The position numbers and the translations under genes were made by a program. Source: Prototheca cutis (lineage: Eukaryota > Chlorophyta > Trebouxiophyceae > Chlorellales > Chlorellaceae). Taken from it: 64,000 nucleotides of DNA. Below, piece by piece: positions 700-57,001 of the stretch. The stretch's first letter is position 1; each line of letters opens with the position of its first letter. Location: NCBI GenBank assembly GCA_002897115.2, contig BCIH01000008.1:1112869-1176868 (forward strand), written 5' to 3'. The notes beneath the pieces were generated by a model. That model did not search any database, had not been told where the DNA came from, and saw nothing but the letters and a program-made list of their open reading frames with translations.

Positions 700-3600
700 C
701 AAACACAAACAAGATGGCTGGCGAGCAGGCTCGCCCTGACCTTTCCCACTAAACATAACGCTCTGATGACTTGCAGCACAGGCCCCAAACCCTTCCTGTG
801 CTTGCTCGACTGCGGCTTGCGGGTTGGAGGACCACCATTACAGAAATTCCATGCTTGCGTTGCATCGGCAGGCGAGTCACACATGGTTCCTCCGTCGGAC
901 TCCAGGGCCGTTGAGTCTCCTCTGGACAAGATCTTTCATGTTGAGGACAACCGTGGTTGTCCTCAGATTCACAGCCCAGTTTTGCCTGAGCTTGAACCCC
1001 CGTCCGACAACCTGCGAATTGAACCACGGGCAGCGACGATTTCGATGCGACTGTCATACCCTGTTGCTTTCCATACTTGTATTAATGCCAGTCGGTGCCG
1101 CAGGCATGCAAAAACAATAAATCAGACAAGCAGGCTTGGCAGAGGGTCAGAGTGGTGCATAACAACTTCCTGTTTCATCAAAAGGGGCCACCCCTTAAGA
1201 ACAGGTCTGTGGTGGTTGGTTCTTCACCCCCTTGTGCCAAGCGCACAGTGTGACAAGTTCAACGGCCAACCCTGTCGCACCGCCTCACCTCGCAGCTGGG
1301 GGGTTTGTCCCTGGGGAGGAACATGTCTCTGGACGAGAACATGTAATTCAGACATATTCAGGAGCCCGATGATGCTTTGAATTCTCTGGATCGACGTTCC
1401 TGGATGCGCTGCCTGGTGCCTGAATGCCAACAGACTACACATCCTCCTGAACGAGTGCCATCTATACATGATGGTGGTGGGTGGAGGGGTGGGGGCGTCA
1501 GTGCAAGAGTAAGCCCCGTTGAGTTGACGATGGGGAGCGCACACGAGGTGCTCCCCCCATCGCCGGCCACATGACTGTAACTATGGCGAGCTGCCACGCC
1601 TGTCGAGCTCAGAGGTGCCGAGAAGGGACCCTGGCGGGGCACGAGGCTCCGACGGGACCCGCCCCCCGGCACCACCCAAGCAAGGCAGGCGAGGGTCCTC
1701 CCCTTTCGGGGTGGCACTCTCTGCCTCGTCGCCCGGGGACTTTCTCCCAGTACATGGTCGCCCTCCGCCGGGCCTAGACCCGGACAGGCAGCGTCCCGTA
1801 GGACGAGTGCCGGGCCCGGGGCCCAGGGAGGGCAGCGGATCAGCGGCCTCCGCAACGCGAGGTTGCAGTGGCAAGGTTGTACCGAAGTGGCCCTTTGCAC
1901 TGCGCCCTTACCATTCTGGTGGTGTTTGGAGAGCGCCATAAGTCAATCGGTCGAAGGAGGCGACGCCACATCGTCACCATGCCTGCTGGGACTCCCTGCA
2001 TGGAGGCGGTCATCCGTTTGGGGGAAAGCGTCTTGTAAAAATCGCAGCTGCGGAGACAGCGTCTTTTTGATGGAAGACTTTCAAAGCAGCAAAAAAAATT
2101 ACAATTGTGCGCGACGGGGTTCCATCAGATAGTGGTGCATGTAAGAGTATCAACAGAGATGTTTCAGACAAGCGACGTTACTATGGTTATTTCTCATCAC
2201 CTGGGACGTCCGTAGCGCACAAGAATTCAAACATGCCATAACAGCAGCATCCCAAGGGAGGAGGGGGGGGGTTGAACCACGCACCTCGTTCATCAGCATT
2301 GTTTACTTGCGGCAGCAGACTGGGAGCTCTCGCCTGCTCAGCTTGCCACATGGGTGCCCATGCATCATCTCGACGGAGGCTCTGCTGCCTGCGTGGGAAG
2401 AGCGCAGCCAGGCACGAATGTGTGAGATGGCCTAGGCGATCAATCTGAACGAACAAGGTGCCGCACAATCCATAACGTCGCACGCAGCATGAGATGATGG
2501 GGGGCACGTGAGCAGGTTCAACTTGAGAAAAAAAGAAACGTGAACAGGCCCCAAAAGCCCTCAGTTCAGGTCTCCAAATAATTTTCTCTACACAGTCGGT
2601 GACTGCTCAGTAGAACGAAAGTTATTTTTTGACATCCTTGGGCCCATCAAGGTGAGTCAGGACGAAAGAAAGAAACGGGAACCAAACATATGTGGCACGG
2701 GTCGGCGATCATTTCTTCTCACAGACAGCGGGCGTTTGTATTGCTGTCTCCGAAGGTGTCCTAAGAATTTTGATCGGGTGTATCTCCTCATCCCCACGCG
2801 CACACTGACACGGCACAAATAGAAAGAGCAACAGACACAAACCCAAGAAGATCGTCAGTCAGTCAAGGTCAGAAAGAACGCAGCGAAAATGTTCGTGTCT
2901 CATCAAGCTTTTCAGCTCAGAAACCATGTCACGAACGGTGTCATCATCCCTTGCTGCTCTTCAAAGCCGGAGAATGCAGACAGCGATGCCAACTAGGCAA
3001 AGTAGTATAGGGGTCGGAAGCGTGGAGGGCACCACCTGGGCCCTGCCAAAAGGACATGCTCATTCCAAGCACCCACATACCGTGATTGATTGATTGATGA
3101 AGTCAGTCCATTCCGTCCAGGCAGGGCTTGTTCAAGATGGGCCGCCTGCATGCAATGTTCCAACAGGTCAGAGTCAGCTCACACCACCTGTTGCAGATGC
3201 ACAAGACAGGGGGTGGAGAGTGCCACAAAAGGTCAAGTGTGATGTCGCTGTGCTGCTTGTCGGGGTGGCAACCGAGGAAGCCGGCCCCGATCAAAAGCGC
3301 AACGGTTGATCTCCTCGGGGTCAAGGTGGTATGGGACAGGCTCGTCTCATGGCCTCGAGACGGCTGTACGGAGGATATCCCGAGGCTTGCATGCAGGCAG
3401 GCCGGGCCACCCATGGGATGGGTCCCGGCCTCTTCACAAGCATCGCAACACCGCCCTCAGGAATGCTTGAAGTGTCCACAAAAGGATTCAGTTCTCAAAG
3501 ATTATATTCAACATCTTAGGGCGGCTACAACACTGCACAGACATGCCCAGAAAACGCAGTCGCGGCGCGCACCTTGCCAGCCCAGAGCCAGCGATGCCTG

Positions 3601-8352: not shown

Positions 8353-8933
8353 TTATGTCATGTGGGCGTTCAGGCCAACGTGTGCTGGTCCACCACCATT
8401 CCTGGAATCTGTTGCTCTTGCTAGAAAGGATGCCGTGGGCTTGAGCTCGTGTCTGCAGCGTTTTGGGACCATCTGTTGCGTTGAAGACATGATGGTTGGC
8501 CGGGCATCCCATGATAACCAATGGGGCATGGACAAGAGGGGCCTGGGGGCTCATGCAGGCCACAATCCCCCAAGATTGGGTCGTGGCACGACTGTGGAAG
8601 CCTCAGAAAGAGGCGCAATCAGAACAGAAGAATGACTCTGCTAGCACATCTTGCTGCAGCAAGACATCTGGAGTGACGTGTTTTCCGAGAAAGCAACTGG
8701 CCTGCTTGCCTTCCAATGGCTAGCCAGATCATGGCAGGACTGGCAGGCGCAGAAACATGCCCCCTTGGCCATGACCGCGTTGTAATGGTATTCGTCATGT
8801 CTGACCATGGCCACGTGAAATGTGAATGATGGCGGTCGCGTGTCCTCCGTTTCATGGACACGATCCAAATCTAACAGATCGTGCCCGAGTTCCGACACTA
8901 TCAGAAAAGATATGAGGTCGCTTTGTATCATTA
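8353..8933. other. Intergenic, KDO8P synthase 3' flank
   Basis: No gene is seen. Its right border is the TA dinucleotide (8932-8933) that marks the insertion site of the Fanzor element. Confidence 0.5.
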
Positions 8934-9177
8934 CCATGCAGGGCCAAAATTATGCAACCAGCTCAGCCAGTGACAGCGTCATATCACCCCGGGGGTTGCT
9001 GGGCATCACGGATGGCCGCAAATTTTCACTCTCTGCAGGGCCATAGGAAGGTGGATGACCATCTTAATGATGGACCACCTCCGGGGCTGTTTTCCCTTCC
9101 CGGGGGAGGGGAGGAGCCCCGGGGGTTCCCACCCCCAGTTGGGAAGGCTATAACCTTTCAGGATGGATACATGTTCA
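8934..9177 (-). ncRNA. Candidate Fanzor guide (omega) RNA region, structured element end
   Basis: These 244 nt lie between the Fanzor stop codon and the element end. In characterised Fanzor and TnpB loci the guide RNA scaffold is encoded here and reads out into flanking DNA. The sequence is well conserved in the otherwise deleted copy 2. It contains a long hairpin: an outer stem CCGGGGCT (9081-9088) with AGCCCCGG (9115-9122), and an inner stem around 9094-9111. Between the two copies one inner pair changes from C-G (9099/9106) to T-A (56390/56397), which preserves pairing. Expression and boundaries are inferred, not seen. Confidence 0.4.
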
Positions 9178-10543
9178 TCAGCACTGCGGCTTTGGGCACT
9201 GGAAGCACAGAGGCCGCTTGCCGGTCTTCCGCAGGTGTTCCACGATGTGCCTCATGTTCAGACACGCCATCAAGTCTCTGTTCCAGAGACTATGCTCGCC
9301 CTTCAAGGGGTGGCACTTCTCGTTGGTGAAGTGCAGCAGCCCGTGGCACACCACTGTGGGCGTCTGCTCCCTGCGGTACGGGTGTGGGTTGGGCACGCGG
9401 AGGAACATCTCCACTGTGCACTCCTCGTGTTTGCAGGCCGGGCAGCGCTTGGAGGTGCGGAACTCGTCGATGAGCACGACCTTGAACCCCGCCTTGACCA
9501 GCGCCTGCAGCAGCCCGACGTGCGGCATCGGCTCGTGGTAGCGTGCTGCGCCCAGCGAGCAGTCGCTGACGACCAGCGTCGCGCCGTTCGCGAACTTGCG
9601 CAGGCGCGCGATGACCGCCGCGTAGGCCTTTTGCCGGTAAATGTACGCCCAAAGACGGAGCTTCCGGAAGATGGGCTTGGCATAGTGCTTGCTGAGCGTC
9701 GGCTCGACNTNGCNGAACACGCGCAGGTACGCCAAGAAGTCTGCCACCGTGCAGGCCCTGGTGCCATTGGGCACCTCGGTGGCCAGGCGCCGCAGGGCCT
9801 TGCGCACACCCTTGGTCATGAGCCTCTGGAGCAGCCTCCGGAACTTGCGTGACCGTGTGAGGAACACTCACTCCCTGCTGCTGATCCGCATGGTCAGGCG
9901 GCGTCCCTTCCCATGGCTCGAGTCCTCGTGCATGCAGTACATCAAGTCCCTGCGGCTGGGGTCGATGAACACACACTTGCCCAGCTGCTCCAGCTCCTCG
10001 GGGCTGAGGTCATCGACGTAGCGCAGGCCCTCGAGGCCTCGGCGTCTCACGACCCTGCGTCGTGCGGCCGGCTGCTGTGTATCCGCGCGGTCCTGCTCCT
10101 TCCGGCGGTCCTTGACGTTGAGGATCAGGTTCATGGTGCCCCGCACATTGTTGCCAAAGTACTTGCGAACGTTGGCCTCCACCGCTGCGCACTGGGTTTT
10201 CCCCCCAGTACTTGGCATCCTGCACGTCAAGCAGAACGGGAACTCACGAGCTGATGTCGACTTGGCTCTCCTAGTCGTCCAGAAGACCGTGGAACCTGCG
10301 CTGCCAGGTCGCACGCACTGACGCCTTGACGGTCGTCATGGCGTTTTGGTGCACCTCCCGCCCACTACCCCAAAAGTCGCGGGCCATTCGCTTTGCACCC
10401 GTTATTGTAATGGGTACCTGAAATAGGAGGTCAGCGGGGAGTCCCCGTATGTTATACCGAGTTCCCACTGGCCGACCCGCCTCGGGAAACCTGGTGTCGT
10501 GCCAGGGGGTCAATTTCCGGGACCTTCTAAAACCTCCTGGCAC
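9178..10543 (-). pseudogene. Fanzor (eukaryotic TnpB-like RNA-guided nuclease), broken copy
   Basis: Fanzor proteins are RuvC-like nucleases guided by an RNA made from the end of their own transposon. Read along the minus strand, the N-terminal part (10543 onward) has MTTVKASVRATW. The central part has KYFGNNVRGTMNLILNVKDR and the first RuvC Asp in FIDPSRRDLMYCMHED (about 9961-9963). The C-terminal part has the RuvC Glu in LIDEFRTSKRCPAC (about 9463-9465), a CPAC...C...C zinc ribbon, NPHPYRREQ, and the last Asp in WNRDLMACLNM (about 9274-9276). All three catalytic positions survive. Breaks are in-frame stops near 10271 and 10247, a one-base frame change at a C6 run (10201-10206), and a TGA at 9868-9870. 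Three N bases lie at 9709-9714. Some breaks could be sequencing errors or small introns. Confidence 0.82.
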
Positions 10544-10702
10544 GACCCGTCCTACTGCCGAGAAGGAGCCAAACCCATCCTCTGAGCGACGCGGCTAGGG
10601 AATGCGGTCCAACAGGCATTTCGTCTGATAAACATGCCCTTGCTGTGCAGGTGGGAGTCGACCAGTCTCGAGAAGGTTTCATCATTTTTGCCCTGCACTG
10701 TA

Positions 10703-11233
10703 GAGATACGTTCCTCTGGGCAGTGCGCGGGGTGCATCAGTACCGCCATGATTATAACGTGCTCCGATGGCACAATACTCGAGCCTTCTTTTTGTATTTT
10801 GCTTGTCCAGCACAAGGCGTGCCGTGATCTGATCGACAACCCTGGCCGCCACATTCTGCGGCGCACTGCACAGTTCGCACGACGGTCTGGATTGCACGAG
10901 GCCAAGCACAGCTACTGATCCATGCTTTTGGAACCATAGAACGTGATTCTCTTGTTTTGCTCGTCTGGAATAGGCGCAGCGGTTATACGAGCAGCCAAGT
11001 CTGGGCCCCAACATACCGAGGTGAGCTTGCCGCGTTCAGCCAGTGCCTGGGGGAATGGACATTTGGATGCAATACTGCCCAAGCACAGTCACTGCTGAAA
11101 CAGTTTCATGATGAACTGTGTCACGCCAGTATGAGGGTGACTGGAAATGCAAGCCGGTTGCGAATGGGCACTGCATTGTCTGGACTGGGTTTTCTATACA
11201 TGCACCATCTAGAAACCCCGGCAAAACAGACGG
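10703..11233. other. Upstream region of the IGHMBP2-like helicase gene
   Basis: No supported gene; it should hold the helicase promoter. An additional 5' exon of that gene cannot be excluded. Confidence 0.4.
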
Positions 11234-56075: not shown

Positions 56076-56227
56076 AGACTGACGGCTGCAATCCGCACCA
56101 GCTCTCTGTTGTAACACCCCTGCTGCAAGGATTGAGTTGATGTTTTGTTGGGGGGTCTTCAGGAACCAGGGTTGGCAGGTCGTACTATCCCGTGCATTTG
56201 CAGCAGCAAACAAACAGTGGCATTGTA

Positions 56228-56831
56228 CCATGCAGGGCAAAAATAATGCAACCAGCTCGGCCAGCAACAGCGCCACATCACCCCGGGGGTTGCTGGGCAT
56301 CACTGATGGCTGTGAATTGTCACCCCCCACAGGGCAATAGGAAGGTGGACCACCTCAATGATGGACCACCTCCGGGGCTGCTTTCCCTTTCCGGGGAAGG
56401 GAAGGAGCCCCGGGGGTTCCCGCCCCCAGTTGGGAAGGCTATAACCCCCCATGATAGATGGATGTATGTCCATCAGCACCGTGCTCTTGGGCGCTGGAAG
56501 CACTGAGGTCGCCTGCGGGTCTTCCGCAGGCTCTGCACGGTGTGACTCATGTTCAGACACGTCATCAAGTCTCTGTTCCAGAGGCGATGCTCGCCTTTCG
56601 GGGGCCGGCACTTCTCGTTGGTGCAGCACCAGCTGATGGCACACCACCGTGGGCGTCTGCTCTCTGCACGACCTGTCCTGCTACCAAGAAGGAACCCAAC
56701 CCACCCTCTGAGCGATGTGGCAAGGGAATGCGATCCAACAGGCATTTTGTTGGGGAGACATGCCCTTGCTGTGCAGGTGAGAGTCTTCTGACGAATCTCA
56801 AGAAGGTTTCATCATTTTCTGCCGTGCATTG
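56228..56831 (-). mobile_element. Internally deleted Fanzor element (MITE-like), copy 2
   Basis: A 604 bp derivative of the element at 8934-10700, flanked by TA (56226-56227 and 56832-56833). Its left end begins CCATGCAGGGCAAAAATAAT; its right end, read inward, begins CAATGCACGGCAGAAAATGA. It keeps the left part (matching 8934 to about 9375) and the right part (matching about 10535 to 10700), joined near 56665, so about 1.16 kb has been lost. What remains of the nuclease is only the C-terminal tail (TNEKCRPPKGEHRLWNRDLM). The structured noncoding end, including the hairpin at 56373-56415, is kept. Confidence 0.82.
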
Positions 56832-57001
56832 TATTTTGTTGTAGTGTACAAGAAGACGGAGGGGGTGGTTGTATGCCTCCGGGCATGGTCCATCGGCAGA
56901 CCAGATCTGGCTTTCACAATCGGTGTGCGTGAGGGAAGCGAGGCTTTGCCGCCCTGAATTCCATCAGCGACGTTGCCAAGCGCACACAAACACAAGGCAG
57001 C

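What the first reader, a model, noticed from the sequence alone, without database searches (positions are those of the whole stretch)
8934..10700. Fanzor gene carried inside a TA-flanked, mariner-like transposon in a green alga
Seen: a minus-strand frame with all three RuvC positions (FIDPSRRDLMY, LIDEFRTSKRCPAC, WNRDLMACLNM) and a C4 zinc ribbon, inside an element with inverted termini CAGTGCAGGGCAAAA / CCATGCAGGGCCAAAA and TA on both sides. Known: Fanzors are eukaryotic TnpB relatives, RNA-guided nucleases found in several transposon types. Inferred: this is a Tc1/mariner-ended Fanzor family of this alga. The copy is broken by stop codons and a homopolymer frame change, but intact relatives may exist elsewhere in the genome.
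Basis: partly seen in the sequence, partly recalled or inferred. Interest (0 to 1): 0.92.

Follow-up and report, generated by a model that had tools for sequence, protein, structure and literature searches.

The report
Dead Fanzor transposon copy with relatives
This stretch is a broken, internally deleted copy of a transposon carrying a gene for a Fanzor, a eukaryotic relative of CRISPR nucleases, in what is probably a colourless alga whose genome also holds longer copies with open reading frames and many gene-less miniature copies.

Summary
Confirmed: 8934-10700 is a Fanzor1-bearing element with inverted termini and TA on both sides. Its protein matches two solved Fanzor1s (6e-28, 1.5e-16) with the three catalytic acids present. 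Copies elsewhere stop at the same borders: inside, 765 of 765 same-end pairs are alike; outside, 0 of 1540 pairs. The genome best fits Prototheca cutis, a colourless green alga.

Corrections: this copy is a deletion derivative. It lacks about 963 and 634 bp of a 3.4-kb parent, has one nonsense codon and an apparent frameshift, and one zinc-ribbon Cys is Phe. Two longer copies carry 708- and 748-codon open frames; 0 of 17 longer copies has an in-frame stop in its sequenced part. 'Mariner' is unproven: TA and termini fit, but three weakly controlled transposase profiles found nothing.

New: 40 scored ghost copies of ~590 bp (one at 56228-56831; a lower bound) keep only the ends, including a conserved 3' region that may fold as a guide RNA (covariation weak). 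The 5' flank favours TGTA (28 of 50), a candidate target-adjacent motif like SpuFz1's CATA. The layout closely repeats S. punctatus Spu-1: a new member of a known kind.

The parts
8934..10700 (-). Fanzor1-bearing TIR element, internally deleted copy (1767 bp); Fanzor sense is the minus strand
8932..8933 (.). flanking TA at the Fanzor 3' end
10701..10702 (.). flanking TA at the Fanzor 5' end
8934..8949 (+). terminal inverted repeat, Fanzor 3' end (CCATGCAGGGCCAAAA)
10685..10700 (-). terminal inverted repeat, Fanzor 5' end (CAGTGCAGGGCAAAAA)
10701..10704 (-). TCTA at the 5' flank, an instance of the TSTA preference (candidate target-adjacent motif)
9868..10335 (-). open piece of the Fanzor frame with RuvC-I (Asp at 9961-9963), ended by a TGA at 9868-9870
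9178..9867 (-). open piece of the Fanzor frame with RuvC-II Glu (9463-9465), zinc ribbon (Cys 9442-9444, Cys 9433-9435, Phe 9328-9330, Cys 9313-9315) and RuvC-III Asp (9274-9276)
10096..10097 (.). junction of a deletion of about 963 bp relative to the 3.4-kb copies; a deletion of 948-964 bp at this place, as aligned, is seen in four other mapped copies (class A)
10232..10237 (.). junction of a deletion of about 634 bp; the two parental segments overlap by 6 nt here (microhomology); same parental break positions as in class B copies
10201..10206 (-). C-run where the reading frame appears to change (by eye)
8932..9082 (-). candidate 3' part of a guide-RNA scaffold; stem P1 pairs 9022-9042 with 8932-8950, so TIR and TA lie in the stem
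   Evidence: covariation weak
8912..8931 (-). where a guide would be read, just outside the element (inferred)
   Evidence: inference from PMC10711439 section 27
56228..56831 (-). second member in the window: 604-bp ghost copy that keeps only the two ends (parent about 7-164 and 2923-3428), TA at 56226-56227 and 56832-56833

Best explanation
The feature is a dead, internally deleted copy of a DNA transposon whose 3.4-kb parent, as far as read, encodes only a Fanzor1. Shown: the borders, the TA flanks, the Fanzor identity and catalytic residues, a family with three kinds of deletion derivative, and coding constraint in the longer copies. Inferred: the parent's protein binds an RNA transcribed across the element's 3' end (3' non-coding region, TIR, TA), reads the DNA just outside as guide, needs a 5' TSTA/TGTA motif next to the target, and cuts the matching empty site so that repair from a copy-bearing DNA keeps or spreads the element. 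A transposase acting in trans, not identified here, would move full, deleted and ghost copies alike; ghosts would add guides but no protein.
For: Fanzor1: PDB sequence hits (PpFz1 1.4e-56 and SpuFz1 1.3e-29 with the longer copy L047); counting along those alignments the acids fall on SpuFz1 D383/E541/D606, named as metal-binding in PMC10432273 (passage). Borders: 765 of 765 same-end inner pairs alike, 0 of 1540 flank pairs. TA at 26 of 26 5' ends and 29 of 31 3' ends (five of the 5' ends assigned by eye, two spurious 3' pattern hits dropped). Constraint among 17 longer copies: no stop allele (7.8 expected), omega 0.51 in frame against 1.17 and 1.54 off frame, variable columns 78/62/106 by codon position, p=0.001. 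Derivatives: shared deletions and 40 scored ghosts of 378 candidates. TSTA before 17 of 26 fetched 5' ends (p=1e-8) and 30 of 50 genome-wide by pattern (23 of 41 not previously read, p=2e-9). 3' end: P1 stem kept in 98.0% of cells against 35-46% when slid, with TIR and TA in the stem as predicted for Fanzor1 RNAs in PMC10711439.
Against: No transcript or activity data. Covariation in the stem is weak (1 of 16 pairs changed on both sides; 20 of 500 shuffles reach the score, 40 of 500 the percentage paired), 4 of 5 single sequences do not fold better than shuffles, and Rfam gives nothing. 3' flanks also show some TSTA (10 of 31, p=0.014), so part of the preference may be the transposase's. Class B deletion copies show a similar in-frame omega (0.50), so constraint there may be inherited. 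Most of the 17 longer copies are read only in part (2 of 17 without a large gap) and some have 1-2-base gaps. No empty site was seen, so TA duplication is not proved.
Confidence: 0.72

Rival explanations
1. A true Tc1/mariner family: a mariner-type DDE transposase, in an unassembled or diverged autonomous copy, owns these termini and Fanzor is a passenger or helper.
For: TA at 55 of 57 examined ends and CAGT/CCRT-starting termini; Fanzor1-only elements with mariner termini and TA are known (PUl-4, PMC3627910, passages).
Against: DDE_3, DDE_1, Transposase_1: 0 hits in the assembly. These are weak negatives: they rang in 3, 1 and 0 of 14 control genomes. The one listed TIR pair of 6.4 kb is all N in the 1.5 kb that was read.
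Confidence: 0.4
2. Termini of another TA-target superfamily or an unclassified transposase, as with Spu-1 of Spizellomyces, for which the authors found no transposase between the repeats.
For: No Tc1/mariner profile hit; PMC10432273 reports no transposase between Spu-1 repeats (passage).
Against: No positive evidence for any other superfamily; no other transposase profiles were searched.
Confidence: 0.35
3. The protein is no longer used; the family spread by a transposase in trans and open frames survive only because copies are young.
For: Many copies are deleted or gapped; the window copy is dead; class B deletion copies show a similar omega.
Against: Among longer copies synonymous change exceeds non-synonymous and no stop allele appears although synonymous divergence is 5-8%.
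Confidence: 0.15
4. The TA and TSTA context reflects only the transposase's target choice; it is not a Fanzor target-adjacent motif.
For: TSTA is also above background at 3' ends (10 of 31, p=0.014), as a palindromic target would give.
Against: Enrichment is stronger at the 5' flank (Fisher p=0.017), the side where SpuFz1's CATA lies.
Confidence: 0.4

Closest known systems
Spu-1 elements of Spizellomyces punctatus, SpuFz1 (PMC10432273; passages read)
   Same: Fanzor1 ORF between inverted repeats; two conserved bases upstream of the 5' repeat (CA there, TG here), giving a 4-mer ending in TA; ghosts of about 550 nt there, about 590 here; authors found no transposase between the repeats; guide RNA at the 3' end (measured there, candidate here).
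   Different: Repeat sequence and host; a Gly/Arg-rich insert before RuvC-I here; 11 Spu-1 Fanzor loci hold further genes such as Gypsy/Ty3, not seen here; guide RNA and motif are measured there, inferred here.
Fanzor1 in Mariner elements, e.g. PUl-4 (PMC3627910; passages read)
   Same: Fanzor1-only element, inverted repeats, TA flanks.
   Different: There the repeats are identical to confirmed mariners; here no mariner was found.
Parasitella parasitica Fanzor 1 (PDB 9cf0)
   Same: Closest solved relative by sequence, in the middle part, RuvC and zinc ribbon.
   Different: Lacks the Gly/Arg-rich insert of roughly 150 residues; a fungal protein.
Uncharacterized Fanzor element, most abundant repeat of Auxenochlorella UTEX 250-A (PMC12633428 and PMC12636532; passages read)
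   Same: Abundant Fanzor-encoding repeat in a related alga; may be the same family.
   Different: No termini or sequence could be compared (supplement not available).

Membership tests
Fanzor1 | RuvC acids D, E, D in register with SpuFz1 D383, E541, D606 | tested here: met
   counted by hand along the alignments; residue numbers from PMC10432273
Fanzor1 | closest to solved proteins called Fanzor 1 | tested here: met
   the significant PDB hits are PpFz1 and SpuFz1
Fanzor1 | C4 zinc finger before the RD motif, in the longer copies | tested here: met
   L047, L007, L003 and L036 frames read CP(A)C ... RCTNEKC ... NRD
Fanzor1 | C4 zinc finger before the RD motif, in the window copy itself | tested here: not met
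   3 of 4 Cys; third is Phe at 9328-9330. Membership is claimed for the family; the window copy is a degraded member
Fanzor1 | RNA-guided DNA cleavage | not testable with these tools
   needs an assay
Tc1/mariner | TA flanks on both sides | tested here: met
   26 of 26 5' ends, 29 of 31 3' ends
Tc1/mariner | TA is a target-site duplication (empty site has one TA) | tested here: inconclusive
   no empty site available; only border sharpness tested
Tc1/mariner | mariner-type DDE transposase in the element or with the same termini | tested here: inconclusive
   0 hits for PF13358, PF03184, PF01359; controls rang in 3, 1 and 0 of 14 genomes; gaps, introns not modelled
Tc1/mariner | termini like a confirmed mariner | not tested
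   no termini library on hand
Spu-1-like Fanzor element with ghosts | Fanzor loci plus short loci sharing both ends but no gene | tested here: met
Spu-1-like Fanzor element with ghosts | conserved two bases upstream of the 5' repeat | tested here: met
   TG at 28 of 50 and TC at 2 of 50; TS at 17 of 26 fetched ends. A preference, not a fixed motif
Spu-1-like Fanzor element with ghosts | expressed guide RNA from the 3' end | not testable with these tools
   only a candidate fold

The most novel reading that the evidence does not exclude
In this alga a transposon with no transposase of its own is kept by its RNA-guided nuclease: longer copies supply Fanzor under selection, while the ghosts are RNA-only partners that lend their own flanking guides in trans, so that one protein polices many insertion sites through a TGTA motif.
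Probability: 0.25. Interest if true: 0.75.

Novelty: new member of a known kind. Interest (0 to 1): 0.5.

Why it matters
What Fanzors do for their transposons is an open question. This family looks like a second case with the layout of Spu-1 (Fanzor copies, gene-less ghosts, a preferred TA-ending 4-mer upstream, no transposase found), in an alga instead of a chytrid fungus. If ghosts and the upstream motif recur in distant hosts, it is likelier that they matter, and the family yields exact predictions: an RNA reaching past the 3' TA, and a TGTA target-adjacent motif.

Tried and rejected
Very long open frames (up to 4597 aa) at copies of this family looked like giant fusions; the loci show runs of N beside those copies, so this was dropped. 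The 6.4-kb TIR pair on C2 as an autonomous element: the 1.5 kb read was all N. Rfam on 8700-10900: nothing at E<=0.1. Two patterns for a variant 5' terminus were too rare to count (2 sites, then 0). The first protein search gave 10 hits, with only 8000 candidates scored and perhaps crowded by the Gly-rich insert; it was repeated on the RuvC part (68 hits). Intact-versus-deleted contrast in selection: class A is weaker (omega 0.72) but class B is not (0.50), so no claim is made from it. Structure prediction: tool switched off.

Rows dropped: 36 copies were placed; loci on C12 (292 kb), C15 and C22 and the partial copy at C8:1183532-1183846 were not. In some searches, 27 of the 36 entered (17 longer, 5 class A, 5 class B); the 4 ghosts and 5 unassigned copies (C1b, C2c, C4c, C4e, C12a) did not. 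In one search only columns or codons with at least three sequences were counted. For the 3' RNA alignment five of the 34 matches were left out: three are 5' ends, one lies in a gap, one is truncated. In one search two of 33 matches to the 3' pattern are spurious and were dropped from the TA count.

Full report
What is there. On the minus strand two open pieces of one frame, 9868-10335 and 9178-9867, are parted by a single TGA (9868-9870). The second piece matches Parasitella parasitica Fanzor 1 (6.3e-28) and Spizellomyces punctatus Fanzor 1 (1.5e-16) and no other solved protein at E<=1. PF07282 is hit at 2.1e-5, just under its curated cut-off. Counting by hand along the printed alignments, the Asp of FIDPS, Glu of LIDEF and Asp of WNRD fall on SpuFz1 D383, E541 and D606, which PMC10432273 names as metal-binding (passage). 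The third zinc-ribbon cysteine is Phe in this copy (9328-9330); L047 and L007 have Cys.

Host. The genome (19.89 Mb, 23 contigs) has no chlorophyll a/b-binding hit (of the control genomes only Synechococcus rang). The fetched DNA is 61.2% GC. Prototheca cutis JCM 15793 is given as 20.03 Mb, 61.3% GC, scaffold N50 1,409,608 (passages); if contigs are numbered by size, the lengths put the N50 here at C6, between 1.37 and 1.57 Mb. The paper counts 46 scaffolds, not 23. This is a fit, not a proof.

Family. A DNA search gave 101 matches, with 40 of 367 candidates scored. I placed 36 copies on the longest gap-free one, C7:1135070-1138499 (L047, 3430 bp). Four structures recur. Long copies of about 3.4 kb, many with assembly gaps. 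Class A lacks about 963 bp (parent about 1240-2205): five copies including the window's, with aligned gaps of 948-964 bp. Class B lacks 469-1098 and 1712-2925: four copies complete across both junctions and one that shows the first. Class C, ghosts, keeps about 4-164 and 2923-3428: four placed copies; a search with the ghost at 56228-56831 gave it and 39 more at near full length, 40 of 378 candidates scored, so a lower bound. The window copy joins the class A deletion with the first class B deletion, so it is a recombinant or a second-step deletion. The ghost in L025 shares 98.4% with it over the ORF tail, including the Cys-to-Phe change (rows).

Borders. Two hundred bases outside the ends are unlike in all 1540 pairs of 56 flanks, while inside all 765 same-end pairs are alike (and 211 of 775 pairs of a 5' with a 3' end). 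TA stands at 26 of 26 5' ends and 29 of 31 3' ends; the two exceptions read TG (five of the 5' ends assigned by eye).

Coding state. L047 has a 748-codon and L007 a 708-codon open frame, with some N. In the sequenced parts of 17 longer copies no in-frame stop occurs; the part read ranges from 445 to 1994 of 2010 bases, only L047 and L007 have no gap there other than N or small in-frame ones, and a few others have 1-2-base gaps. Pooled pairwise dN/dS is 0.23, 0.47 and 0.46 in three stretches. With a transition weight of 3, omega is 0.51 in frame and 1.17 and 1.54 in the other two frames, with 0 stop alleles against 7.8 expected. Class A gives 0.72 and class B 0.50, so I do not claim relaxed constraint in the derivatives. 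Copies are not independent. An upstream open frame in L045 has PpFz1 as its only PDB match at E<=10, too weak to stand alone (0.58); upstream exons are likely but no gene model was made.

RNA candidate. Among longer copies the 3' non-coding end differs by 4.3-6.1% per site and the 5' end by 10.9%, and the 3' end is covered in all 40 scored ghosts. RNAalifold joins an internal repeat with the TIR and the flanking TA (P1, window 9022-9042 with 8932-8950). P1 is paired in 98.0% of 459 cells against 35-46% when slid, but the sequences hardly vary: one of 16 pairs is changed on both sides, and 20 of 500 shuffles reach the covariation score. Of five single sequences only L046 folds better than shuffles (z -4.0; the others -0.75 to 0.50). 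PMC10711439 (section 27 read) reports Fanzor1 RNAs that run about 15 nt past the TSD and predicts TIR and TSD in the scaffold, which is the arrangement proposed here.

Motif. Before the TA, 17 of 26 fetched 5' ends read T(G/C), against 15.3% of TA sites in the fetched DNA (p=1e-8); 3' ends give 10 of 31 (p=0.014; 5' against 3', Fisher p=0.017). Genome-wide, 50 exact 5' ends of the commonest form were found and 30 have TS (28 TG); leaving out the 9 already read, 23 of 41 (p=2e-9). In S. punctatus, CA is conserved upstream of the 5' repeat and the motif is CATA (passages).

Transposase. PF13358, PF03184 and PF01359 gave nothing in the assembly; they rang in 3, 1 and 0 of 14 control genomes, so these are weak negatives. 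No other transposase family was searched. Of 23 TIR pairs formed from the first 100 of 307 core sites, only one exceeds 4.4 kb (6386 bp), and the part read is N. The mover is unknown; mariner is possible, not shown.

Relatives. With the RuvC part as query, 68 proteins scored E<=1e-10 among 4875 candidates. The nearest, P0001 (72% identity there, 73%), is unnamed. In a quick FastTree of 72 sequences the alga copies join P0001 (1.0), then P0002 and P0025 (0.94), all unnamed. Transfer between fungi and algae is possible but not tested.

Literature. Fanzor1-only elements with mariner termini and TA are in PMC3627910 (passages). The Auxenochlorella paper calls its most abundant repeat an uncharacterized Fanzor element (passages). 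One search for Fanzor with Prototheca returned only that work, so in that search I found no description of this family; supplements were not open to me.

Noticed in passing
window 56228-56831: A 604-bp ghost copy of the same family, with TA on both sides, keeping only the two ends.
   Followed up: yes
L047:4440-6683 (also L007, L045, P0001): Between the middle part and RuvC-I these Fanzors carry a Gly/Arg-rich insert of roughly 150 residues with a KRK stretch; PpFz1 and SpuFz1 have only a short linker there in the alignments.
   Followed up: partly
G000 genome-wide; L036:7456-7986 (-), L041:9444-9824 (+): PF07282 gives 138 hits in the genome at E<=0.01, many with a different match range from this family. 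The two weak ones inside fetched loci read like TnpB/Fanzor-type tails, with only weak or no PDB matches: perhaps a second, more numerous group.
   Followed up: partly
L025 (C8:1182883-1183480) and window 8934-10700: A ghost about 61 kb away shares 98.4% with the window copy over the ORF tail, with the same Cys-to-Phe change, though only 84-92% elsewhere: mosaic or gene conversion.
   Followed up: partly
L007 (C20:110577) and L047 (C7:1138482): Two long copies have TG instead of TA at the 3' flank.
   Followed up: no
5' ends on C1, C3, C4, C5, C18: A variant 5' terminus (CAGTGACGGCAGAAAATGATGA) recurs among copies.
   Followed up: no
positions 315-423 and 595-703 of the L047 element: A diverged tandem duplication in the 5' part (about 70-79% alike in the matches), seen in many copies.
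   Followed up: no
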